Part shown: positions 11,681 through 27,057 of the stretch, piece after piece
How positions within the stretch are numbered: position 1 is the stretch's first letter
Layout of the letters: every line of letters begins with the position of its first letter
Assembly (NCBI GenBank): GCA_016871175.1
Contig: VFZL01000037.1
Span: 1 to 40,437, forward strand
Source of the DNA: Acidimicrobiia bacterium
GTDB taxonomy: Bacteria > Acidobacteriota > Vicinamibacteria > Vicinamibacterales > CAVVIG01
Length of the DNA: 40,437 bases
Direction: 5' to 3'
The notes under the pieces: model-generated
What the model saw: the letters and a program-made list of their open reading frames with translations, nothing else
Database searches by the model: none
What the model was told of the DNA's origin: nothing
Translations under genes and position numbers: made by a program

Positions 11681-12370
11681 CTACTGCCGCTGGGGCGCCG
11701 TCGATCGGATGGGCGTCGGACGTGGTGCTCGGACCTTGATGCGGGACCAGGCGAGCCGCGCCACCAGCAGCACGCCGATGATGACGGCGTATCGATAGGG
11801 GCTGGTCACGTCTGACTTCACGAGCCACCAATAGTGGATGACGGCGGTGACACCAGCCACGTACGCCAGCCGATGCAGCGCCTGCCAGCGCTTCCCGCCA
11901 AGCCGGCGAATCATGCCGGCAGTGGACGTGAGCGCCAGCGGCAACAGCATCATCAGCGTCGCGAAACCGATCGTAATGAACGGCCGCTTGTAGATGTCCT
12001 CCGCCACTGAGGCCGTGAGATTCGTCACCGTGCTCCACGCGACGATCCCGTCCGGGAAGTCGAGGGCCGCGAACCGATCGGCGATGACGTAGATGAGGAA
12101 ATGGAGCGAGCCGTAGAAGAAGGCGTACAATCCCATCATCCGCCGAAACTTGATGAGGGGCTGCCAGCCGGTCAGCCGCCGCGCCGGCGTAATCGCGAGC
12201 GAGATGGCGAGGAAGCGCAGCGCCCAGACCCCTGTCTCGTTCGTGATGTCACTGAGCGGGTTCGCGCTGAGATTCCCCGTCAGCCCCGCCCAGATGATCC
12301 ACGTCAGCGGACCCAGGCCGGCCAAGAACACAGCCGGCTTGAGCACCCACTTGACGATGTTAGGAGACAT
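11681..12370 (-). CDS. msrQ: MsrQ, heme-binding membrane subunit of MsrPQ
   Basis: This 229-residue integral membrane protein starts at ATG 12368-12370; a GTG one codon earlier is possible. Six helices are expected: FLAGLGPLTWIIWAGL, WALRFLAISLAITPARR, LYAFFYGSLHFLIYVIAD, FITIGFATLMMLLPLALTS, LAYVAGVTAVIHYWWLV and YAVIIGVLLVARLAW. The conserved His residues in SLHF and VIHYWW, and the WQALHRL stretch, match the heme-ligand pattern of YedZ/MsrQ. The complex takes quinol electrons to MsrP, which repairs methionine sulfoxide in the periplasm. It lies 18 nt downstream of msrP on the same strand and is the second gene of the operon. Confidence 0.93.
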   Translation of the reverse strand: MSPNIVKWVLKPAVFLAGLGPLTWIIWAGLTGNLSANPLSDITNETGVWALRFLAISLAITPARRLTGWQPLIKFRRMMGLYAFFYGSLHFLIYVIADRFAALDFPDGIVAWSTVTNLTASVAEDIYKRPFITIGFATLMMLLPLALTSTAGMIRRLGGKRWQALHRLAYVAGVTAVIHYWWLVKSDVTSPYRYAVIIGVLLVARLAWSRIKVRAPRPTPIRSTAPQRQ

Positions 12371-12388
12371 CACTTCGCCGCGCGAGCC

Positions 12389-13363
12389 TCAGTAGTTCTT
12401 CTTCAGGTCCAAGCCGGAGTACAGGCTCGCCACTTGGTCCCCGTAGCCGTTGAACATCAGGGTCTTACGCCGGAAGAACTCCCCGATTCGCCGCTCGGTA
12501 GCCTGCGTCCAGCGAGGATGGTCCACGCTCGGATTCACATTCGAGTAGAACCCGTACTCGCTCGGCTGCATCTCCTGCCATGTGTTGAGCGGCTGCCGCT
12601 CGGTGAAGCGGATCTTCACGATGGATTTGATGTTCTTGAAGCCGTACTTCCACGGCACGACCAGACGAAGCGGCGCCCCGTCCTGCTTGGGGATTACTTC
12701 GCCGTACAGCCCGACCGCGATGATGGCGAGCGGATGCATCGCCTCGTCCATGCGTAAGCCCTCGGTGTACGGCCACCGCAGGCCGGCGGTCCTCAGCCCC
12801 ACCATCGTCGACGCGTCGACGGCGGTCTCGAACTGCACGAACTTCGCTTTGCCGGTAGGTTCGGCCTTCTTCAACACCTCCGACAGTGGAAAGCCAACCC
12901 ACGGGATGACCATGGACCACGCCTCGACGCAACGCAGTCGATAGATCCGTTCTTCCAGGGTGATGCCCTTGAGCAGATCTTCGAGCTGGTACGACGCAGG
13001 CTTGGCGCACTCCCCCTCGACCACGACTTTCCACGGCTCGGTCTTGAGCTTGCCCGCGTAGAGCGATGGGGCTTCCTTGTCGGTCCCAAACTCGTAGAAG
13101 TTGTTGTACGTCGTAATCTGCTCCCAGCTATTCAGCTTCTCGTCGCTGACGCTGAAAGCGCTCTTCTGGACGTTCTCGAGCTTGCGCCCGCGGGGGGCGG
13201 GCTGCGCCCCCTGCACGACGGCGCCCGCGCCGAGCACGCCTGCGGCGGTTGCGGCGCCAGCAGCGGCGCCGGTCGCCGTGCGAAGGAAGTCACGGCGATT
13301 GACGTACAGCTTCTTGTCGGTGATCTCCGAGCTGCGAACGTCGGGCGCAGGTTTGATCAGCAT
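12389..13363 (-). CDS. msrP: MsrP, periplasmic methionine sulfoxide reductase
   Basis: This 324-residue molybdopterin enzyme of the YedY/MsrP family starts at ATG 13361-13363 with AGGAG close upstream. A twin-arginine signal ([11 protein letters not shown], Arg23-Arg24) is followed by an Ala/Gly-rich hydrophobic core, so the folded cofactor-loaded protein is exported by Tat. The molybdenum-binding cysteine is Cys145 in [19 protein letters not shown]. Further family motifs are [20 protein letters not shown] and [20 protein letters not shown]. It reduces protein-bound methionine sulfoxide using electrons from the adjacent MsrQ. It is the first gene of the pair, with a promoter candidate upstream. 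Confidence 0.95.
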
Positions 13364-14309: not shown

Positions 14310-16031
14310 CTAGCGGACGTCTCGCCAAGCGCGACCGCGGTTTACTTGTCGGGCGAAGCAGCCACGTGCGTTGGCGTAGGCCTGTGCCAGTGCCCCGGCC
14401 GAGAGCGGCTGCAGGAGCTCGATATCGGTCGGGCATGGGTGGCGCAACTCAGCGTCCTCGGCATCTAGATCAGCGTAGTGGAGCGCGGCGCCGTCACGCA
14501 CCCACTGCGGACGCTGGCTGAGGTAGGGATCGACTAATGCGTGCGCGACCTCGCGTCGGATCACGCGCTCGAGAACCCCGCGTTGCCGCAATTGATCGGT
14601 GGGCATCAAGTGAATCGTCCCGCCCACCACCGTCCCGAGCGTGAACCAATGACGACCAGTCGCGCGCTCGTAGCTCTGATCGCTACCATGCACGAGCACG
14701 GACAACGTCGAGGACGCCTGAAGGCCCAACCGCGTTGTCAGCTGCGCTCGCGCCGAGGCGACGAGCGCGTCAAGGTCGCGCCGCTCCGCGTTCAGACGAT
14801 CGAGATCGCTGACCTCGCCCACAGCGGCCGAGGGTCCCGAGGCGCTGGTGCCTATCCCGGGCGTGCCAGCCGAGGCGGTCGTCGACAGGCCGGCCGCTCC
14901 TGCGCCCGACGTAGTTGCTGCACTCCCACGACGGCCGTTCGCCGTCGCGCCATTGGCCGACCCGGACCCCGCGCCGGCACCCGTCGGCGCGCCCGCTGAC
15001 GGAGGCGATGCGGGAACTCCGCGCACCGAAGCGTCCGCCGCCAGTGGGCTGACGCCGCTCGTCTCGATCATCCCGATGATGGTGCCCGGATAGTAACGCA
15101 GCAGCAGCGCCTCCGCCGACTCGCCCCTCGCCGCGAGGCGCGTGGCGCCGATGACACACATGCCGACACCATGTCCGTACCCGCGACCGACGAACACATA
15201 TCGCTCACCCTGGTCGTGCACATCAAACAGGGTGCTTTTGATCTGCGTGGGACCGAGCGACATGCGCAGGTCCGGACCCGCAATGAACGAGGGTTGCATG
15301 CCGTCCAATCCGAGGCGGCTGACGCGGCCCGATTTGTCGCGGGCCAGCACCCGAATCCGCCGGAGCGAGCCCGTGAACCCCGCGTCCCGCAGCGTTCGCT
15401 CGATGTCGGCGGCGCGGACATCTGCGTTCCACACCGGATCACCGCCGCAACCGACCTCAGGTCGCGACGGCAGATAGGGCAGATCCTCGGCGCCAGTCCA
15501 CACGGCTGACGGCACCTGTGTGTGCCCCCCGCACGAGGCGCTGTAGTACACCGTGGCGAGCGCGCCACGGAACGTCAGGACGCGCCCGGCGGTTCGGTCC
15601 GCGGCGGCGGTCGTCGCCGGTGCGGGTCGGCGCAAGACCTGGCAGTGCGTTTCGTCACACACGTCAAACCCCTCGGCATCGTGCCGACGGAGGTTCTGCA
15701 GCGCGTAGGTGCGCGCCGCAATCGCGAGCGCCTGTAAGACGGCAGGATCGCTGTCTCGCGCCGCCTCACCGGTCAGCACGCCGGCGACGTACTCCTCGAG
15801 GGGTATGACGCGCACGGCATATCCGGCAGGCCCCGCCAGACCCACTCGAACGACCGACGGCACGCGGACGACAGGTCTGTCCGGGTCGGCAGGACGTCTG
15901 CGGACGTCGGTCGGCGCGGGCGGCGCGCTGCGCTGGCGCCCAGGCATCGGCGTGACGGCTCCGAGCCCTCGCCCCACGGCCGTCCCGAGCGTGCCACACA
16001 CGAAGAGGAAGATGAGCGCCCGTCGCATCAT
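14310..16031 (-). CDS. SpoIID-domain secreted protein with degenerate protease-like end
   Basis: This 573-residue protein starts at ATG 16029-16031, overlapping the esterase stop by 4 nt. A signal peptide or anchor (ALIFLFVCGTLGTAVG) is followed by a SpoIID/LytB domain: IPLEEYVAGVLTGEA (78-90), VLQALAIAARTYAL (98-111) and GRGYGHGVGMCVIGA (283-296). SpoIID-type domains cleave peptidoglycan glycan strands lacking stem peptides. A long Gly/Ala/Ser/Thr linker spans 330-405. The C-terminal part resembles peptidase-MA-like domains (LMPTDQLRQRG, then ALVDPYLSQRPQWVRDGAALHYA), but the zinc motif HExxH reads REVAH (493-497), so one ligand is lost. It probably acts in cell-wall turnover. It is the third gene of the SET-esterase operon. 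Confidence 0.85.
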   Translation of the reverse strand: MMRRALIFLFVCGTLGTAVGRGLGAVTPMPGRQRSAPPAPTDVRRRPADPDRPVVRVPSVVRVGLAGPAGYAVRVIPLEEYVAGVLTGEAARDSDPAVLQALAIAARTYALQNLRRHDAEGFDVCDETHCQVLRRPAPATTAAADRTAGRVLTFRGALATVYYSASCGGHTQVPSAVWTGAEDLPYLPSRPEVGCGGDPVWNADVRAADIERTLRDAGFTGSLRRIRVLARDKSGRVSRLGLDGMQPSFIAGPDLRMSLGPTQIKSTLFDVHDQGERYVFVGRGYGHGVGMCVIGATRLAARGESAEALLLRYYPGTIIGMIETSGVSPLAADASVRGVPASPPSAGAPTGAGAGSGSANGATANGRRGSAATTSGAGAAGLSTTASAGTPGIGTSASGPSAAVGEVSDLDRLNAERRDLDALVASARAQLTTRLGLQASSTLSVLVHGSDQSYERATGRHWFTLGTVVGGTIHLMPTDQLRQRGVLERVIRREVAHALVDPYLSQRPQWVRDGAALHYADLDAEDAELRHPCPTDIELLQPLSAGALAQAYANARGCFARQVNRGRAWRDVR

Positions 16032-16681
16032 CGGCGCCTCCCCACCATCGCTCGGACGCCTTCCCAGATAAGCGGCAAGCTCTCTGCCAAAGAGTGGTCG
16101 TCGTCGAGCGCCGTGAGCCGAACATGGGGTCGCTGCCTGGCGAATTGCTCCACCGTCCGATAGTCGACCGACGCGTCCCGTAGGCCTTGATAAATCCACG
16201 TCGGCTGCGCCACCACCGCGTCCATGGGCTCGTACTGCAGCGAGTCCTCGTAGAACGCGACGTCGAGGAAACGTTCCACTCCAAATCCGTAGTGGAAGAA
16301 CGCCATGCGCCCCTCGCGTTTCCAGGCCTCCATGCGCTCCGGCGGCAGCAGATGGTGTCCTGGCTTCGCGAACATGACGGCCGGCGCCAGCAGCACGAGA
16401 TTGGACACGCGTGGGAGGCGATCGGCGGCCAGGACAGCCAACGTCCCGCCCAGGCTCGAGCCTACGAGTGTGACGGGCCCTGGCGGGAGCCCAGACACTT
16501 CAGCCTCCAGCTGAGCGAGCATCCGCGTCATCGTCAGCGTGGAAAAATCGGGGGCATTGAAGTCGGGACGCCGCAAGGCCACGCCGCACGCGAGGAGTCG
16601 TTCGGCCAGGTAGCCCGCCTTGGACGACTGCGGCGACGAGGCAAAGCCGTGCAGGTAGACAACCTGCGGTGCCTCGTTCAC
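16028..16681 (-). CDS. YqiA/UPF0227-like alpha/beta-hydrolase esterase
   Basis: This 217-residue cytosolic hydrolase starts at GTG 16679-16681, overlapping the SET gene stop by 4 nt. Its stop overlaps the SpoIID start by 4 nt. The fold begins VVYLHGFASSPQSSKAGYLAERL, the characteristic opening of YqiA/YcfP esterases. The nucleophile elbow is GSSLGG with Ser76. The probable acid is Asp169 in YQGLRDASVD, and the His is His196 in LDDDHSLAE, so the triad is complete. The natural substrate is unknown; YqiA hydrolyses short acyl-CoA and p-nitrophenyl esters. The strict overlaps suggest it is made in fixed ratio with the SET methyltransferase and the wall protein, though no biochemical link is known. 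Confidence 0.88.
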   Translation of the reverse strand: MNEAPQVVYLHGFASSPQSSKAGYLAERLLACGVALRRPDFNAPDFSTLTMTRMLAQLEAEVSGLPPGPVTLVGSSLGGTLAVLAADRLPRVSNLVLLAPAVMFAKPGHHLLPPERMEAWKREGRMAFFHYGFGVERFLDVAFYEDSLQYEPMDAVVAQPTWIYQGLRDASVDYRTVEQFARQRPHVRLTALDDDHSLAESLPLIWEGVRAMVGRRR

Positions 16682-17070
16682 AACAGCGTCTTGCAGCCCT
16701 GACAACAGCGGCACTCGATCAATCCCTCCCCGTCCGTATGGTAGTTGTATGTCAGCTCCTCGCCCCTGCGGATTTTCCTCGCCGCGCGAATCCAGATCAC
16801 ACCGTCGACAATGTGGACGTAGCAGTTCGGCGAACAGGAGTGGTTGATGAAGCGCGCCACGTTGCCGCCGACGCCCGCGTCGATCGCCGTCCGGTTCGTG
16901 AGCTTGAAGCACCAGATGTGGCCTCTCCGGATATACCGCCGCTCCCTCTTCAGGCTTTCGGCGTTGGTGATCCTTTCGCCGGCGTAGTCCACGATGCGTG
17001 TGTTCTTGTTGATGGCTTGAGTGGCAAAGACCCCCCAACCCGCAATCTTCGAGTGCCGCTTTACAATCAT
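16678..17070 (-). CDS. SET-domain lysine methyltransferase with post-SET cysteines
   Basis: This 130-residue protein is almost only a SET domain. It shows IAGWGVFATQAI (9-20), VDYAGERI (27-34), the AdoMet/pseudoknot motif NHSCSPNC (76-83) and GEELTYNY (103-110) with the active-site Tyr. A compact cysteine cluster follows (Cys120, 122, 123, 126), like a post-SET zinc site. Such proteins transfer methyl groups from AdoMet to lysine side chains. In eukaryotes the targets are often histones; in bacteria the targets are mostly unknown. The start is ATG 17068-17070, with no clear Shine-Dalgarno. It is the first gene of a three-gene overlapping operon and is divergent from a radical SAM gene. No target protein is evident in the window. 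Confidence 0.93.
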   Translation of the reverse strand: MIVKRHSKIAGWGVFATQAINKNTRIVDYAGERITNAESLKRERRYIRRGHIWCFKLTNRTAIDAGVGGNVARFINHSCSPNCYVHIVDGVIWIRAARKIRRGEELTYNYHTDGEGLIECRCCQGCKTLL

Positions 17071-17307: not shown

Positions 17308-18282
17308 ATGGAAAGGATCATCGCTGCTTGGGGTCGCATCCTTCGGGGCTACGCCCCCTCAATGTCCATCGAAATCACGCGCGAGTGTCCGCTACGATGC
17401 CAGGGCTGCTATGCCTTCGGCGATGACCATCTGGGTGGCACGGTCACGCTGCGGCAAGTCCGCGACTTCAAGGGGTATGAGCTCATCGACGGTGTGCTGA
17501 CGCTCGTCGACAAGCACAAGCCGCTGCATCTTTCGATCGTCGGCGGTGAGCCCCTGGTGCGCTACCGCGAGCTCGACACGCTGCTCCCGCTGCTCTCCGA
17601 GCGAGGGATCCACGTCCAGCTCGTCACCAGCGGCGTCCGCGAGATTCCCAAGGGCTGGCACGGGCTGCGTCGGTTCACGATCGTCTTGTCGGTCGACGGT
17701 CTCCAGCCGGAGCACGACGCGCGGCGAACCCCCGCCACGTATGAGCGGATTCAGAACCACATTCTCGGCCATCGCGTCACTATACATTGCACAGTGACGC
17801 GGCAACAGATTCGCCGGCCTGGGTATCTCGAAGAGTTCATCGCGTTCTGGTCGGCCAAGGCAGAGGTTCGGAGGATTTGGATGAGCCTCTACACGCCGCA
17901 GATTGGGGACATCTCCCAGGAACGGCTAACGCCTGCCGATCGGCAACGCGTCGTCGCGGAATTGATGGCGCTCCGCCTCCGCTATCCCAAGCTTGAGGCA
18001 CCGAAGGGGATGTTGGATGCGTACCTGAATCCGCCGAAATCGCCGGAGGAATGCGTGTTCGCGCGCACGACGACGCCGATCTCTGCGGATCTGAAGACAC
18101 GGATCACGCCGTGCCAGTTCGGCGGTAAGCCCGACTGTGAGAACTGCGGGTGCGTCGCCTCAGCAGCCCTCGCCGCCGTCGCGCGCCATCATTTGTGCGG
18201 CTTCATCCCAGTCGGTACCATTTTCACCGGCTCGGTGCGGGTCGGTGAGCAGCTCAAGCGGCTCCTGCCGGCGGAGAGCTGA
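17308..18282 (+). CDS. Radical SAM protein with C-terminal cysteine cluster
   Basis: This 324-residue enzyme carries the [4Fe-4S]/AdoMet motif CPLRCQGC (Cys27, Cys31, Cys34; CX3CX2C) close to the N-terminus. It continues with LSIVGGEPLVRYRELDTLL, the GGEP motif, and VLSVDGLQPEHDARR. A C-terminal set of cysteines (249, 269, 277, 280, 282, 297; CQFGGKPDCENCGC) resembles the SPASM/twitch auxiliary-cluster domain of peptide-modifying or dehydrogenating radical SAM enzymes. The exact subfamily is not recognised. No short precursor peptide gene was seen within 500 nt on either side. It is divergent from the SET operon and convergent with the TonB receptor gene. Confidence 0.85.
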   Translation: MERIIAAWGRILRGYAPSMSIEITRECPLRCQGCYAFGDDHLGGTVTLRQVRDFKGYELIDGVLTLVDKHKPLHLSIVGGEPLVRYRELDTLLPLLSERGIHVQLVTSGVREIPKGWHGLRRFTIVLSVDGLQPEHDARRTPATYERIQNHILGHRVTIHCTVTRQQIRRPGYLEEFIAFWSAKAEVRRIWMSLYTPQIGDISQERLTPADRQRVVAELMALRLRYPKLEAPKGMLDAYLNPPKSPEECVFARTTTPISADLKTRITPCQFGGKPDCENCGCVASAALAAVARHHLCGFIPVGTIFTGSVRVGEQLKRLLPAES

Positions 18283-20904: not shown

Positions 20905-23900
20905 TCAGTAGAAGTCATGCGAGTCGAAATCGACTAAGAGGCCGCCGAGTCCTTGGACGGCGTCCGCGCGGATCGAAATGACCCCTTCCTGATGCTGCAG
21001 CACGCCGTCGATGATCAAGAACGGTTCTTCGATAATCGTCATCCGGTCGCGAGCGAAGAGGTCCGGGCGAACGATGACATTGACGATGCCGGTTTCGTCT
21101 TCGAGCGTGAGGAAGACGAACCCTTTGGCGGTCCCCGGACGCTGACGCGTGATGACCATCCCCGCGACCCGAATCCGGCGGCCCGGCCGCACGGTGGTCA
21201 TGTCGGCCGCCCGCATCACGCCGCGCATCGCGAGCTCGTCTCGCCGAAACGCCATCGGGTGTCGGCCCACGGTCAACCCCATCCCCGCGTAGTCCGCCAC
21301 GAGCCGTTCGGCCTCGGTCATCGGCTTGAGGGGACAATGCTCAGGCTCCGCTTGGCGATGAGACTCGGAAAGAAGTTCGTCCCGGCTCTGCAGCGCCTGC
21401 GGCCACGCCGGGGTCCCCGACGCGGCTGCTTCGTCGAACAGTTCCCCACTTGGACGGACGGCGCGTTCGGCTTGCCACAACGCGGACCGGCGGTCGTAGC
21501 CGAACGCATTCAGCGCGCCGAGGTTGGCGAGCGTCACCACCTCGTCACGGCGCACACCCGTCCGCTCGATGAGATCGTCCAGCGACGTGAAGCGCGCTGC
21601 CACCGGGCCGGCAGGCGTTCGCGTGCCGATCGTCCAGTCGTACGAGCAGTTGTTGCAGAACCATCGCTGCTTCTCCGCCGTCTCCAGCATCGACTCATCG
21701 TCACAGCCGCACTTCGGACAGCGAAAATCATCGTCGTCGTGTCGTGCTGCCGAGAGGCGGCTCGCACCACCCGATGAGGACCGACGGGGATCGTGTCGCG
21801 CGGTGGCGATACGCTGGCCGATCTCCTGTCGCAAGCCAGACACGTATCGCAAGCCGAGTCGGATGGCACCGTCCGCCTCGACCGTGCAGTTCCAATCCGA
21901 GCACTGGACGTCAATCGGTTGAAAACGGACGCCGCGCCGCTGCGCATCTTTCACCAGCGTGGACGGGTGATAAAACCCCATCGGTTGGTTGTTCAGAAGT
22001 GCGGTGTAGAACGCTGCGGGATAGTGGGCTTTGAGATACGCGCTCGCGTACGCGAGCAGCGCGAAGCTGGCGGCGTGCGACTCGGGGAACCCATACAGTG
22101 CAAACGAGGTGATCGACAGGACGATCGCTTCGGCGGCTTGACCCGTGATGCCGTTGCGCGCCATCCCCTCGCGGAGCTGAACTTCGATCTGCTTCATGCG
22201 TTTCTCGGAGCGCTTGAACCCCATCGCACGCCGCAGCTCTTCCGCTTGCCCTCCCGTAAACCCGGCCGCGATCATCGCGATGCGCAGCAACTGCTCCTGG
22301 AACAGCGGCACACCCAGCGTGCGCGCCAGCACCGGCTCGAGCGCGGGATGGGGATACGTCACCGGCTCCTTGCCGGCCCGACGATTCAGGTAGGGGTGCA
22401 CCATCTGTCCCACGATGGGCCCCGGCCGGATGATGGCGACCTCCACGACGAGGTCGTAGAAGCTGGCGGGCTTCAAGCGCGGCAGCGTCGCCATCTGCGC
22501 GCGGGATTCCACCTGGAACACGCCGATCGTGTCCGCGGCCTGCAGCATCTCGTAGACGACGGGATCGTTTTGTGGGAGATGGGCAAGGTCGACCCGTCTT
22601 CGCTCGCCGAGCTGCGTCCCCTCGTCGCTCGTCGAGCCTCGGGGGGCACGTTGGTCGCCGTTGACCAACGCGATCGCGTCTTGAAGCACGGCCATCATCC
22701 CGAGGCCCAGCAGATCGACTTTGACGATCCCCATGTCGGCGCAGTCATCCTTGTCCCACTGGACGATGACGCGTCCCGGCATGCTGGCATTCTCGAGGGG
22801 GACCACGCTATCGAGTCGACCTTGGCAGATCACCATGCCACCCGAGTGCTGGCCGAGATGCCGCGGCAGATCCTGCATCTCCTGCCACAGCTGCGCGAAG
22901 AGCTGCACGCGACGGCGGTTGAGATCGAGCCCAACGCGTGCGAGCTGTCGTGGCACGGCATCGCTCGGATCGCTGAACTCGAACTGGTTCATCATCTTCG
23001 CCAGCCGATCCACCTGCGTCGCGTCGAACCCGAGCACCTTCCCCACCTCGCGCGCGGCGCTGCGTCCTCGATACGTGATGACATTGGCGGTCATGGCTGC
23101 GCCGTGTGCGCCGTGCTGCTCGTAGACGTGCTGAATGACGCGCTCACGCCGGTCTCCGCTCGGCAGATCCAGATCGATGTCCGGCCACTCGCCCCGCTCT
23201 TCCGAGAGGAAACGCTCGAACAACAAATCCATTCCCACCGGATCGACCGCGGTGATCCCCAAGCTGTAGCAGACAGCGCTATTCGCCGCCGACCCACGGC
23301 CCTGCACAAGGATGTCGTGCTGCCGGCAAAAATTCACGATGTCCCAAACGATGAGGAAGTAGCCGGAAAGATTGAGCTTCTCGATGAGATCTAGCTCGCG
23401 CGCGATCTGGGCGCGCGCACGTTCGTGATACGGGCGATAGCGATCCCGCGCGCCCACCTCGGTGATCTTGCGAAGGAACGACGGCTGCGTCTCACCAGGC
23501 GGCACCGGGTAATCCGGAAAGCGATAGCCGAGATTGGCCATCGTGTACTGCAGGCGGTCGGCCAGCTCGCGCGTCCGGGCCACGGCATCGGGCATGTCGG
23601 CGAACAGCGCCGCCATCTCCTTCGGCGGCTTGAGATATCGCTCCACATTCGGAGCAAGCCGTCGCCCAGCGTGCGCCAGATCGGTGTGATGGTGAATACA
23701 GGTGAGCACGTCGAACAACGGACGGGCCGAGGGGTCCACGAATCGCACGCCGTTGGTGGCGAGCGTCGGCACGCGAAAGGCAGAGGCCATCTGGACCAGC
23801 GTCTGGATGTCGGCATCCTCGTCGCGCCGATGATGACGCTGGAGATCCACGTACACGCGATCGCGCCCAAACAGCCCAACGAGGCGATCGAGCAACCCTG

Positions 23901-24393
23901 CGACGCCAAAACGCCGAGCGTCGAGCGCCGCCCGTCCGACGAGCGCGACCAGACCGCTGGTCCGCCCCTCGAAGTCCTGCAACGTCAGCGCACCTTCGCC
24001 CTTAGGCGACTGCAGCTTCATGGTGGTGATGAGCCGGCACAGATTGCGGTAGCCGTCTTGCGATTCGCAGAGGACGGCTACCTGGGTCGGGGAGGAGACC
24101 GGGTGGGGTTGCTCGTCAGCCCTACCGGCCTCCTCACCAGCCCCACCCGGCCTCCCCGGTTTACCCGGCCTCACCAGCCGATCGTCGGTGACCGAGAGTT
24201 CGGCACCGACGATCGGCTTGATTCCGACGGCGAGGGCCGCTTTGTGAAAGCGCGGCAAACCGTACACGCCGTCGGCATCGAGCAACGCGATCGCGGGATA
24301 GTCGAGCGCAGCTGCGTGCTCCACGAGCGTCTCTGGCAGCGAGGCGCCTCGCAAGAAACTGAAGGCCGATGCGGTGTGGAGCTCTACGTACAC
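20905..24393 (-). CDS. dnaE2: DnaE2 (ImuC) error-prone DNA polymerase
   Basis: This 1,162-residue C-family polymerase performs damage bypass with ImuA/ImuB. The N-terminal PHP domain (1-260) begins [17 protein letters not shown] and has lost metal-binding His residues (LLDADG), as is usual for ImuC proteins. The palm has [26 protein letters not shown] and [25 protein letters not shown] and [14 protein letters not shown] follow. The C-terminal OB domain ([25 protein letters not shown]) is complete. Two insertions are unusual: a Gly/Pro-rich stretch at 73-103, and a zinc-ribbon-like segment at 890-916 with Cys892, 895, 897, 913 and 916. It lies 32 nt after imuB on the same strand, so the SOS-type promoter before imuA should drive it. 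Confidence 0.95.
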   Translation of the reverse strand: [1162 protein letters not shown]

Positions 24394-24425
24394 GGCAGGT
24401 AGGCGAGTCAGCAGGGAGGGCCTGA

Positions 24426-26057
24426 TTAATCGAAGATCCCCTCAATGAACCACGCGTCGGAGGCTCGGTCGCGGAACACCCGATACCGGGCTCGATCCGA
24501 CAGCGCCACATCCCACTCATCGCGATCCCAGGGTCCCGAGGCGGCGGGCACCGTTGACGAGCGTTCCTCCCACCAGTGCCCCGAGGTACGCCACGGGCCG
24601 GCGGCTGCGACGACCGATCCCCCTGAGAATCCGCGCCGCTCGCTCGTCACACGCACAGGACGTCCGGCTTCCACGACCACTCGTGCTGGCACCGGCTGTC
24701 GACATCGACGAAACGCCACAATGGGATCGACCTGCCCGTCCACGCATGCCGACGACGTGGGCATCGTGAAGACCGGTCGATCGATGGCAAACGGCGCCAT
24801 GGCAAACGTGCCAGGACGGTTGCTATCGAGCCCCATCGGACCCACCGGCGCACCGACACGGTCGGCCCCGAGCACCGCGGCGAGGCGCGCGAGCAAGGTG
24901 GACAAACGCTCTGGCGTCGGCAGCGCACGCGTGAACAAGGTGTGCTGGACAATCCGGCCAGGCGTCGGATCGATCACGATCGTCACACGATCGATCGCGC
25001 GCTCTGGCGGGTGCGCCTCGATGTCGAGCAGGATCAATGTTCGGAGCGTGCGGACATCGCGCAACGGGGAAGGCCACTGCAGATGCCGCGCATGCACGTC
25101 GCGTGAGACCAGATCGAGGATCACGTGCACCACGGCTGCCCCGCGATCACGCCGCTCGAGCTGCGTGGTCAACGGTTCGAGCAAACGGGTCAACACGAAC
25201 GACAGCGGCTCCAAGCCCTCAATGGGCCACTCGAGCTCGAGCGATTGTTCGAATCGTTCCTCCGGCTCGGTTGGCACCAGCGGACGTACGTCCTCACCGC
25301 GCGCAATCGCCTGCCAGAGCACCGCCGGTCGCCCAAGCCGCGTCATCAGGTCTGCAGTGGGCAGCGCCGCCACCTCGCCCAGCGTGCGCAAGGCCCACTG
25401 CTTGAAGACGCTCACGCCCTCACGTGCGGCGGCGGCATCGTTATTCCCCCGCCGCATGCGTCCGTGCTCGGCGTCGTCTCCCCGCGGGCCACGCTCGTAG
25501 CCCGCGTTTCGTCTGGGCCTATCGGTGGACGGGCTTCGGCGGGACGGCAGGACCACGTCAGCAACGTGGGCCAGCACATCGAGCGGCACCGAGGCAAGCG
25601 CCGCAGCTTCGCGTCCCGGCGGCACCACCGTGAGCCCGGGACGCGCGCGTGCGAGCACCAACGCCGCGACACGGGTTCCGGCTATGGCAACATGCACACG
25701 CAACTGTTTTTTTCCAGCCGCACGCATGAGCTCCTGGCCAATCGTACGCCATGCCTCAGCGTCCTCAGGGCCGTCGCCGTGGGCGATCCGCGCCTCTGCC
25801 GCTCCCACGAGGGGGGATCGAACCGCGCGAGGGCGCATCAACCGCTCGAGACCGGACACATCCACCACGACCGTGTGGAACCGGGGCTCGCGATCGGCCC
25901 CGGAACCATCGCACTCGCAGGGAGCATGTTCATACCGAGGGGAAAACGCCTGCGCGATCTCGAGGAGCACGGTGGCAGTCGGCGTGCGGAAGGCTGCGGG
26001 GGCCGGTGCATACAAACAGGCAAATGCCGGACGCGGGGGAGCCACGCGATCAGACAT
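24426..26057 (-). CDS. imuB: ImuB-like Y-family polymerase accessory protein
   Basis: This 543-residue protein starts at ATG 26055-26057, overlapping the imuA stop by 8 nt; an upstream ATG is less likely. The N-terminal half is Y-family-like (FACLYAPAPAAF, TVVVDVSGLERL, VHVAIAGTRVAALVLAR) but lacks the catalytic acidic residues, as expected for ImuB, which bridges DnaE2 and the sliding clamp. The palm/thumb region (ALRTLGEVAALPTADLMTRLG) is normal. The family C-terminal signature is present: GPWRTSGHWWEE, DEWDVALSD, ARYRVFRDRASDAWFIEGIFD. Low-complexity Arg/Gly/Asp-rich insertions sit at about 75-110 and 171-212. I saw no clear clamp-binding QLxLF-type motif. Confidence 0.88.
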   Translation of the reverse strand: MSDRVAPPRPAFACLYAPAPAAFRTPTATVLLEIAQAFSPRYEHAPCECDGSGADREPRFHTVVVDVSGLERLMRPRAVRSPLVGAAEARIAHGDGPEDAEAWRTIGQELMRAAGKKQLRVHVAIAGTRVAALVLARARPGLTVVPPGREAAALASVPLDVLAHVADVVLPSRRSPSTDRPRRNAGYERGPRGDDAEHGRMRRGNNDAAAAREGVSVFKQWALRTLGEVAALPTADLMTRLGRPAVLWQAIARGEDVRPLVPTEPEERFEQSLELEWPIEGLEPLSFVLTRLLEPLTTQLERRDRGAAVVHVILDLVSRDVHARHLQWPSPLRDVRTLRTLILLDIEAHPPERAIDRVTIVIDPTPGRIVQHTLFTRALPTPERLSTLLARLAAVLGADRVGAPVGPMGLDSNRPGTFAMAPFAIDRPVFTMPTSSACVDGQVDPIVAFRRCRQPVPARVVVEAGRPVRVTSERRGFSGGSVVAAAGPWRTSGHWWEERSSTVPAASGPWDRDEWDVALSDRARYRVFRDRASDAWFIEGIFD

Positions 26058-26814
26058 GCGCGTGGACTCGCGTGATGAAGGTGGCATGGGTGGTAGCCGG
26101 CACGCGCGCACGCGCCCGAATCACCCGGCTTTCCACGGGGACCCTCGTACAGGGTTCGACCCCTCCCACAAGCCTCCCGGGCTCCGCCATACCGAGCGGC
26201 TCGACCTTTACGGTGAGCCCTGCTGGACTTCGAGCCATCGGGACATTGCCCACGAGCAATGCGATGGTCTGACTTCCTTCCACCATGCGTTGCAGACGCA
26301 GCCAAGTGGTGAACGGCAGCCGCCGGATGACATCCACCGGCGCCTCCGCGACGTCAAGCGCCACCAAGCCGAAGTTGCCTGCTCGCAGCACGAGGGCCAT
26401 CGCCCGAATCGCCTGCTCCATCGCCCGGTGATGCAGCTCACGCCCGAGTCCGGGATTCGTCACCACATGCCCGCGCATCCACAGCAGGCGGTCGAGCTCG
26501 ACGCCAGCCGCCTCGAGCGATGCCACGTCGAGCATGTCGAGCGCATCGACCACGGCGACCAGCTCGCCGCGACGGGTGGCGGAGGCCAAGAGGTGTAAGA
26601 GCAGGCTCATCCGCCCCGACGTCCGTGGGCCGACGATCTCGGAGAGCTGCCCTCGAGGGAACCCGCCCTCCAAGCAGCGATCGAGGGCGTCAACGCCGGT
26701 AGCACCAGAGGCGTATTCATCCGCAGGATCGGGATTCGGATGCGCGGTCGTCAGCGTCCGATCCAGTCGGCGCGTACGGAGGAGCGATTCCAAATCAGCG
26801 CGTGCCAGAGCCAT
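26050..26814 (-). CDS. imuA: ImuA-like RecA-fold protein
   Basis: This 254-residue protein starts at ATG 26812-26814, about 24 nt after the predicted transcription start; the frame upstream runs through the promoter and is rejected. The middle is a degenerate RecA-like ATPase: SGATGVDALDRCLEGGFPRGQLSEIVG and the Walker-A-like GPRTSGRMS (62-70), in which the usual Lys is Arg. LVAVVDALDMLDVASLEAAGV follows as a Walker-B-like region. ImuA partners ImuB and DnaE2 in mutagenic translesion synthesis. It is the first gene of the operon and is probably repressed by a LexA-type regulator. The lost Walker lysine suggests weak or no ATP hydrolysis. Confidence 0.85.
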   Translation of the reverse strand: MALARADLESLLRTRRLDRTLTTAHPNPDPADEYASGATGVDALDRCLEGGFPRGQLSEIVGPRTSGRMSLLLHLLASATRRGELVAVVDALDMLDVASLEAAGVELDRLLWMRGHVVTNPGLGRELHHRAMEQAIRAMALVLRAGNFGLVALDVAEAPVDVIRRLPFTTWLRLQRMVEGSQTIALLVGNVPMARSPAGLTVKVEPLGMAEPGRLVGGVEPCTRVPVESRVIRARARVPATTHATFITRVHAHV

Positions 26815-26829
26815 GTAGTTTCGCTTTAT

Positions 26830-26873
26830 TTTCGCTACGTCGAAACTATAGCGGATCCCGTAGATTGGCTCAA
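26830..26873 (-). promoter_or_regulatory. imuA promoter with overlapping palindromic operator
   Basis: On the minus strand, TTGAGC (26868-26873), a 17-nt spacer and TATAGT (26845-26850) form a strong promoter. The palindrome TTTCG-N6-CGAAA (26830-26845) overlaps the edge of the -10 and the start region. A wider repeat, TAGTTTCG-N17-CGAAACTA (26817-26848), encloses it. This is the right place and shape for a LexA repressor site. The motif differs from the E. coli and B. subtilis boxes. Confidence 0.65.
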
Positions 26874-27057
26874 GCCTCTCCTGGCCCGGCATCGGCGGGC
26901 GGTCAGCGTGCCGGAGAGGCGACTGGTGGCGAAATGACCGGTCCAGGTATGCGACCGGCTGGCAAGACACTGATAAGATACGACGCAGTTTCTTCTTATG
27001 CGGCTAACTTCCCGCGTGTGTTTTGCTTAGCTGACGTCTCCCGCGGTTGAGTGCGCC

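What the first reader, a model, noticed from the sequence alone, without database searches (positions are those of the whole stretch)
14310..17070. SET methyltransferase, esterase and SpoIID wall protein in a fully overlapped operon
All three genes overlap by exactly 4 nt (GTGA and ATGA), so their translation is coupled. A eukaryote-like SET enzyme with post-SET cysteines, a YqiA-like hydrolase and a secreted glycan-cleaving protein have no known common pathway. This combination may be an undescribed system linking protein-lysine methylation or ester removal to envelope turnover.
Basis: partly seen in the sequence, partly recalled or inferred. Interest (0 to 1): 0.6.

Follow-up and report, generated by a model that had tools for sequence, protein, structure and literature searches.

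The report
Conserved methyltransferase, esterase, wall-enzyme gene cluster
Soil bacteria of one order keep a histone-methylase-like gene, an esterase gene and a cell-wall-cutting enzyme gene side by side; the wall enzyme looks like the trimmed form of an unusual multi-enzyme fusion, but nothing yet shows that the three act in one pathway.

Summary
In detail: SET (16678-17070), a UPF0227 hydrolase (16028-16681) and a SpoIID protein (14310-16031) lie on the minus strand with two 4-nt overlaps. The order is not a quirk of this genome: in 67 SET loci from 14 families of the order, the next same-strand gene is the hydrolase in 52 and the SpoIID gene in 7. It was seen only inside the order: 0 of 8 outside genomes with SET and hydrolase, and 0 of 11 with SET and the wall enzyme, have them adjacent.

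The proposed single system is not supported. Each gene is lost without the others, co-occurrence is not significant in the 63 better genomes, and the trio sits inside a longer conserved stretch (dnaE2 … msrP-msrQ).

The newer part is the third gene. In other families it encodes a penicillin-binding transpeptidase, SpoIID and an HExxH domain in one protein, with the catalytic motifs intact; outside the order the transpeptidase is often a separate neighbouring gene. The window's copy lacks the transpeptidase and has a broken HExxH site.

Best reading: a conserved, probably co-expressed cassette with independent activities, carrying a trimmed version of an apparently undescribed multi-domain wall enzyme.

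The parts
16678..17070 (-). Stand-alone SET-domain protein-lysine methyltransferase, 130 aa, with post-SET zinc cysteines
   Evidence: Pfam SET 2.7e-25; best solved relatives are KMT2A-type SET domains, E 1.7e-22; N76, H77, C79, C83, Y110, C120, C122, C126 invariant in 32 copies
16028..16681 (-). Alpha/beta serine hydrolase, UPF0227, 217 aa, no export signal by eye; triad read as S76-D169-H196
   Evidence: Pfam UPF0227 1.4e-15; S76, D169, H196 invariant in 32 copies; triad assignment is inference from the fold
14310..16031 (-). Exported (by eye) SpoIID-family protein with a C-terminal metallopeptidase-like domain; probably a reduced form of a transpeptidase-SpoIID-HExxH fusion
   Evidence: Pfam SpoIID 1.3e-17, NCBIfam SpoIID_LytB 164.2 bits, cut-off 83.3; model (mean pLDDT 73.4) matches SpoIID structures, Foldseek E 1.5e-16
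15075..15818 (-). SpoIID domain (residues 72-319), with the conserved Glu (E89) and CDxTHCQ motif
   Evidence: E89 invariant in 16 sequences
14541..14555 (-). REVAH, degenerate copy of the HExxH site
   Evidence: HExxH intact in 24 of 33 aligned proteins; RREVAH..RDGAA in the window
16678..16681 (-). 4-nt overlap SET / hydrolase (GTGA)
16028..16031 (-). 4-nt overlap hydrolase / SpoIID (ATGA)
17308..18282 (+). Divergent radical SAM protein, a frequent neighbour (23 of 67 loci)
12389..13363 (-). msrP, downstream part of the longer conserved stretch (32 of 67 loci)
   Evidence: NCBIfam MsrP 463.7 bits, cut-off 207
11681..12373 (-). msrQ (28 of 67 loci)
   Evidence: NCBIfam MsrQ 152.4 bits, cut-off 130
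20905..24393 (-). dnaE2-type error-prone polymerase, upstream part of the longer conserved stretch (26 of 67 loci)
   Evidence: NCBIfam error-prone polymerase 1218.8 bits, cut-off 939

Best explanation
This is a conserved, probably co-expressed cassette of one Acidobacteriota order: SET, then (usually) a UPF0227 esterase, then a wall enzyme. Shown: gene order, conservation, domain make-up, intact motifs of SET, hydrolase and SpoIID. Inferred: SET methylates lysines of an unidentified cytoplasmic protein; the hydrolase cleaves an unidentified cytoplasmic ester or thioester; the third protein is exported and cuts peptidoglycan glycan strands by its SpoIID domain. The third protein probably descends from a transpeptidase-SpoIID-HExxH fusion that could cross-link and cut the wall from one polypeptide; in the window's copy SpoIID is the only part with intact motifs. 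The genes share expression, not a reaction path, which is why any one can be lost alone.
For: Next same-strand gene after SET is the hydrolase in 52 of 67 loci and SpoIID in 7 more. The 55 genomes with both SET and hydrolase all have them within 3 kb. The SET tree largely groups by family. SET paralogues in the same order (L100-L112) have neither partner, and no neighbour family is shared by more than 3 of these 13 loci. Independent losses. Fusion: PF00905 in 6 of 7 proteins scanned, SxxK/SCN/KT, SpoIID Glu and HExxH plus Glu invariant in 12 aligned proteins, model matches at Z 27.8 to a penicillin-binding protein and to SpoIID.
Against: Transcription was not tested. The stretch from dnaE2 to msrPQ is conserved too, so the trio may be carried along by slow rearrangement; no genome-wide background of pair conservation could be computed. 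The 4-nt overlap is frequent only in the window's own family. In 63 better genomes the three genes do not co-occur more than chance. The direction of change (loss of the transpeptidase rather than gain) is inferred from outgroups.
Confidence: 0.55

Rival explanations
1. Synteny by descent only: the trio is the middle of a long ancestral stretch (imu/dnaE2 ... SET-hydrolase-SpoIID ... msrP-msrQ) that rearranges slowly; no shared expression or function is selected.
For: MsrP in 32, DnaE2 in 26 of 67 loci although many loci were too short to reach them; independent losses and no significant co-occurrence in 63 better genomes.
Against: No other gene counted is found beside SET as often as the hydrolase (55 of 67, 52 of them as next gene). 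When the hydrolase is gone SET often still abuts the wall gene, with a possible overlap of 4 or 1 nt in L065, L083 and L087. The SET paralogues' neighbours are not conserved.
Confidence: 0.27
2. A real pathway: SET-made methyl-lysine on a cytoplasmic regulator, tuned by the esterase, controls wall remodelling by the SpoIID enzyme.
For: Conserved order and possible translational coupling.
Against: Family f2 lacks the hydrolase in 6 of 6 genomes and keeps SET in 6 and the wall gene in 5; the SET- and hydrolase-bearing genomes of f8, f10 and f14 have no wall-gene match at E<=1e-70 (weaker SpoIID matches lie elsewhere); five better genomes keep the hydrolase without SET. Compartments differ.
Confidence: 0.13
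3. SET acts on the nucleoid or DNA-repair machinery and belongs with imuA-imuB-dnaE2 rather than with the wall gene.
For: dnaE2 is directly upstream of SET on the same strand in f10 and f14 loci such as L073, L074, L079, L093, L095; characterised bacterial SET proteins methylate host histones (PMC3980110, passages).
Against: In most loci other genes on the opposite strand lie between; no SOS-type site was sought.
Confidence: 0.05

Closest known systems
SET-domain protein-lysine methyltransferases (KMT2/MLL-type SET; bacterial SET proteins such as NUE)
   Same: SET profile and complete post-SET cysteine set
   Different: 130 aa, domain alone, no extra targeting part; found through a free-living order; substrate unknown. 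The main text of the review PMC3980110 has no word beginning 'Acidobacteri' (passages)
UPF0227 / YqiA-type esterases
   Same: Pfam UPF0227 above cut-off; invariant S, D, H; members have measured esterase activity (PMC11145796 passages; PMC13230378 abstract)
   Different: Far below the YqiA equivalog cut-off; a conserved PDFNxPDFxTLTxTRM-like motif in these copies
SpoIID glycan-cleaving enzymes (Bacillus SpoIID, Waddlia SpoIID)
   Same: SpoIID domain and fold; a SpoIID of a non-sporulating bacterium cleaves glycan strands (PMC6635528, passages)
   Different: C-terminal HExxH-type domain, degenerate in the window; in relatives an N-terminal transpeptidase domain; the sporulation equivalog TIGR02870 is not met
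Class B penicillin-binding protein transpeptidase domains
   Same: SxxK, SxN, KT[GA]T and fold, Z 27.8, in relatives of the third gene
   Different: Fused to SpoIID and an HExxH domain; absent from the window's protein

Membership tests
SET protein-lysine methyltransferase | SET profile above curated cut-off | tested here: met
   89.2 bits, cut-off 22.4
SET protein-lysine methyltransferase | NHSCxPNC motif, catalytic Tyr and post-SET CxCxxxC | tested here: met
   window reads NHSCSPNC and CRCCQGC; N76, H77, C79, C83, Y110, C120, C122, C126 invariant in 32 copies while S78, P81, N82 vary; motif roles recalled
SET protein-lysine methyltransferase | methyl transfer to lysine | not testable with these tools
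   needs assay
UPF0227 hydrolase | Pfam cut-off and Ser-Asp-His triad | tested here: met
   58.2 bits, cut-off 21; S76, D169, H196 invariant in 32
YqiA esterase (equivalog) | NCBIfam NF008291 cut-off | tested here: not met
   32.7 bits against 252
SpoIID/LytB domain protein | profile cut-offs and conserved Glu | tested here: met
   Pfam 64.7/23, TIGR02669 164.2/83.3, E89 invariant in 16; catalytic role of the Glu recalled
Stage II sporulation protein D (equivalog) | TIGR02870 cut-off | tested here: not met
   116.3 against 234.75
HExxH metallopeptidase (gluzincin-like C-terminal domain), window copy | zinc-binding HExxH plus downstream Glu | tested here: not met
   REVAH and RDGAA in the window; HExxH intact in 24 of 33 aligned proteins
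HExxH metallopeptidase, relatives | Peptidase MA-type profile or fold | tested here: inconclusive
   DUF1570 in 3 and Peptidase_MA_2 in 2 of 6 pieces scanned, below cut-off, E 0.026-0.17; this part barely tested by fold
Penicillin-binding transpeptidase, relatives' N-terminal domain | profile, SxxK/SxN/KTG and fold | tested here: met
   L076 and L092 read KTA instead of KTG

The most novel reading that the evidence does not exclude
A eukaryote-type lysine methyltransferase is coupled in expression and function to a one-chain wall enzyme that can cross-link (transpeptidase), cut glycan (SpoIID) and perhaps cleave peptides (HExxH): protein-lysine methylation as a control of envelope remodelling in a free-living bacterial order.
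Probability: 0.1. Interest if true: 0.75.

Novelty: new variant of a known kind. Interest (0 to 1): 0.42.

Why it matters
Substrates of SET enzymes in free-living bacteria are, to my knowledge, almost unknown; a SET gene kept beside the same partners through an order gives a defined place to look. The transpeptidase-SpoIID-HExxH protein puts a wall-making and a wall-cutting activity in one chain, and the two-gene version outside the order predicts that the two act together, which can be tested with purified proteins.

Tried and rejected
Phage defence: no PADLOC family matches SET, hydrolase or SpoIID at E<=0.001; the divergent radical SAM protein hits viperin models weakly. Sporulation: the sporulation SpoIID equivalog is not met. 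Host-directed effector: the only NCBIfam hit of SET is far below cut-off (41.8 of 550) and the SET tree largely follows the families, so rejected. Co-occurrence as proof of function: rejected, not significant in 63 better genomes (over all 80 SET/hydrolase p=0.03, which incomplete genomes could produce). Metallopeptidase identity of the C-terminal domain: only motif-level support. Papers on a transpeptidase-SpoIID fusion: searches listed 0, 8 and 1 papers; of these I saw passages of PMC6635528 and PMC10504347 only, and they do not describe it. Papers on SET with Acidobacteria or free-living bacteria: searches (2 listed; 1 listed; 20 of 98 listed; 10 of 38 listed) showed none on this by title; of these I saw passages of PMC3980110 only. 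One search listed 10 of 61, none opened. No significant match of the C-terminal domain was listed by Foldseek or VIA-align, where it is barely tested. ImuB is named from its place; only weak DNA polymerase IV hits (E 2.8e-4) and no Pfam hit. The listed ORF of the hydrolase starts far upstream (TTG); the GTG start was chosen by the alignment of relatives. The E<=1e-70 cut for the wall gene was chosen after seeing the list.
Full report
What is there. On the minus strand of the window lie SET (16678-17070), a UPF0227 hydrolase (16028-16681) and a SpoIID-family protein (14310-16031), with 4-nt overlaps GTGA and ATGA. Pfam gives SET 89.2 bits, UPF0227 58.2 and SpoIID 64.7, all above cut-off. The SET domain has the complete post-SET cysteines: C83, C120, C122 and C126 are invariant in 32 copies, and its nearest solved relatives are KMT2A-type domains. 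The hydrolase has invariant Ser76, Asp169 and His196 but is no YqiA orthologue by NCBIfam.

Is the order more than chance? A SET match was found in 69 of 80 relatives; G052 has only distant matches and G019 only the paralogue, which leaves 67 genomes whose operon-type SET locus I fetched, over 14 of the 15 families sampled (f12 has none). In these 67 loci the hydrolase is the next same-strand gene in 52, the SpoIID gene in 7 (L046, L055, L065, L083, L087, L090, L091), and neither in 8 (L039, L059, L069, L075, L082, L084, L096, L097). Of the 8, L059 and L069 have the hydrolase on the opposite strand and L084 has it about 2.5 kb away. The 55 genomes with both SET and hydrolase all have them within 3 kb. 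A second search, seeded with the third gene in GTDB r220, kept the best 80 of 272 loci; 25 carry SET, and in the 24 of these that also hold SpoIID, SET lies upstream on the same strand with at most the hydrolase and the transpeptidase part between. Thirteen SET paralogue loci (L100-L112) have no hydrolase or SpoIID beside them, and no neighbour family is shared by more than 3 of them. The SET tree largely groups by family, with many forks unresolved. Ten of the paralogues (L100-L108, L111) and L088 group with part of family f2; L109, L110 and L112 form another small clade.

Where it stops. In a draw of 297 genomes of the phylum, 8 genomes outside the order hold both SET and hydrolase at E<=1e-15 (G140, G179, G203, G239, G250, G295, G332, G343); all 8 have them on different contigs. 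Eleven genomes outside the order hold SET and the wall enzyme at E<=1e-70 (G103, G150, G208, G236, G243, G259, G294, G299, G329, G335, G345); 9 have them on different contigs, G243 and G299 more than 600 kb apart. The linkage was therefore seen only inside the order.

Are the genes interdependent? In the 63 genomes with completeness of at least 90% and contamination of at most 5%, 10 have SET without hydrolase and 5 hydrolase without SET (G011, G014, G044, G052, G071); Fisher tests give p=0.61 (SET/hydrolase), 0.45 (SET/SpoIID) and 1.0 (hydrolase/SpoIID). Over all 80 genomes SET/hydrolase gives p=0.03, which incomplete genomes could produce. In L055 only the first part of the hydrolase is left, joined in frame to the SpoIID gene. 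The products can do without each other, which speaks against a single obligatory pathway.

The longer stretch. MsrP is found near SET in 32 of the 67 loci, MsrQ in 28, DnaE2 in 26, the divergent radical SAM protein in 23 and a RidA-type protein in 22, although many loci were too short to reach all of them. In f10 and f14 loci such as L073, L074, L079, L093 and L095 dnaE2 is directly upstream of SET on the same strand. Slow rearrangement of this whole stretch is the main rival to selected co-expression.

The third gene. In families f4, f5, f6, f11, f13 and in one f2 genome (L090) the gene is some 200-300 residues longer at the N-terminus. That part is a penicillin-binding transpeptidase domain: PF00905 in 6 of 7 proteins scanned (the seventh, L035, belongs to f1). 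In 12 aligned proteins the SxxK, SCN and KT motifs, the SpoIID Glu and the HExxH with a downstream Glu are invariant; L076 and L092 read KTA where the others read KTG. Three further long proteins were left out of that alignment (L060, L062, L085); L085 lacks the HExxH part. A model of the L058 protein (mean pLDDT 85.2) matches class B penicillin-binding proteins over residues 39-302 and SpoIID over 276-549, both at Z 27.8. The HExxH part has only motif-level support. In the 80 GTDB loci the transpeptidase is fused to SpoIID in 28, is a separate gene just upstream in 32, was not seen in 19 (6 of which hold under 1.5 kb upstream), and 1 locus (L252) holds no SpoIID part. None of the 32 two-gene loci carries SET; by title they are Terriglobia, Bryobacteraceae, Acidobacteriaceae and other Acidobacteria records. 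Five f23 genomes also have two adjacent genes (G208, G236, G243, G299, G335), while G259, G294, G329 and G345 outside the order have one long frame matching both. Neighbouring genes in some lineages and one fused gene in others suggest joint work (inference). Within family f1, G007 and G022 hold a full-length fusion elsewhere in the genome besides the short operon copy; the window's own genome shows one match only. The window's protein lacks the transpeptidase and its HExxH reads REVAH, while HExxH is intact in 24 of 33 aligned proteins; its SpoIID part is intact.

Mechanism. Shown: order, conservation, domain make-up, motifs. Inferred: SET methylates an unknown cytoplasmic protein; the hydrolase cleaves an unknown cytoplasmic ester (esterase activity is measured for a UPF0227 protein, PMC11145796, passages, and for a YqiA/YcfP-family one, PMC13230378, abstract); the exported third protein cuts glycan strands, as shown for a SpoIID of a non-sporulating bacterium (PMC6635528, passages). 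Co-expression rather than a shared reaction path fits the independent losses best.

Novelty. The SET gene and the hydrolase are new members of known families. I found no description of the transpeptidase-SpoIID-HExxH protein or of its place behind SET in searches (titles, and passages of three papers, only); I rate the whole as a new variant of a known kind.

Noticed in passing
L058:8522-10717, and the corresponding genes in L054, L057, L061, L086, L090, L099: One protein with penicillin-binding transpeptidase, SpoIID and HExxH domains, catalytic motifs present; outside the order the transpeptidase is often a separate upstream gene.
   Followed up: yes
window 11681-13363 and 20905-26970: msrQ-msrP downstream and dnaE2, a probable imuB and an imuA-like gene upstream form a longer conserved stretch around the trio.
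   Followed up: partly
G000:C15:80334-80714 (L100): Second SET copy without the operon neighbours; it groups with part of the family f2 SET proteins, suggesting old transfer or duplication.
   Followed up: partly
G007:C40:19313-21478 and G022:C306:2579-4672: Full-length transpeptidase-SpoIID-HExxH frames away from the SET locus in two genomes of the window's family.
   Followed up: no
L055:5991-7775: Hydrolase reduced to its first part, joined in frame to the SpoIID gene.
   Followed up: partly
window 17308-18282: Conserved divergent radical SAM protein; all NCBIfam hits are far below cut-off.
   Followed up: no
L192, L193, L197: Records titled Acidimicrobiia, Cyanobacteria and Bifidobacterium carry loci like those of this order (L197 the wall gene only); the record names are probably wrong.
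   Followed up: no
L249, L251: Pyrinomonadaceae records with the fused wall gene have msrP-msrQ on the opposite strand within about 3 kb downstream.
   Followed up: no
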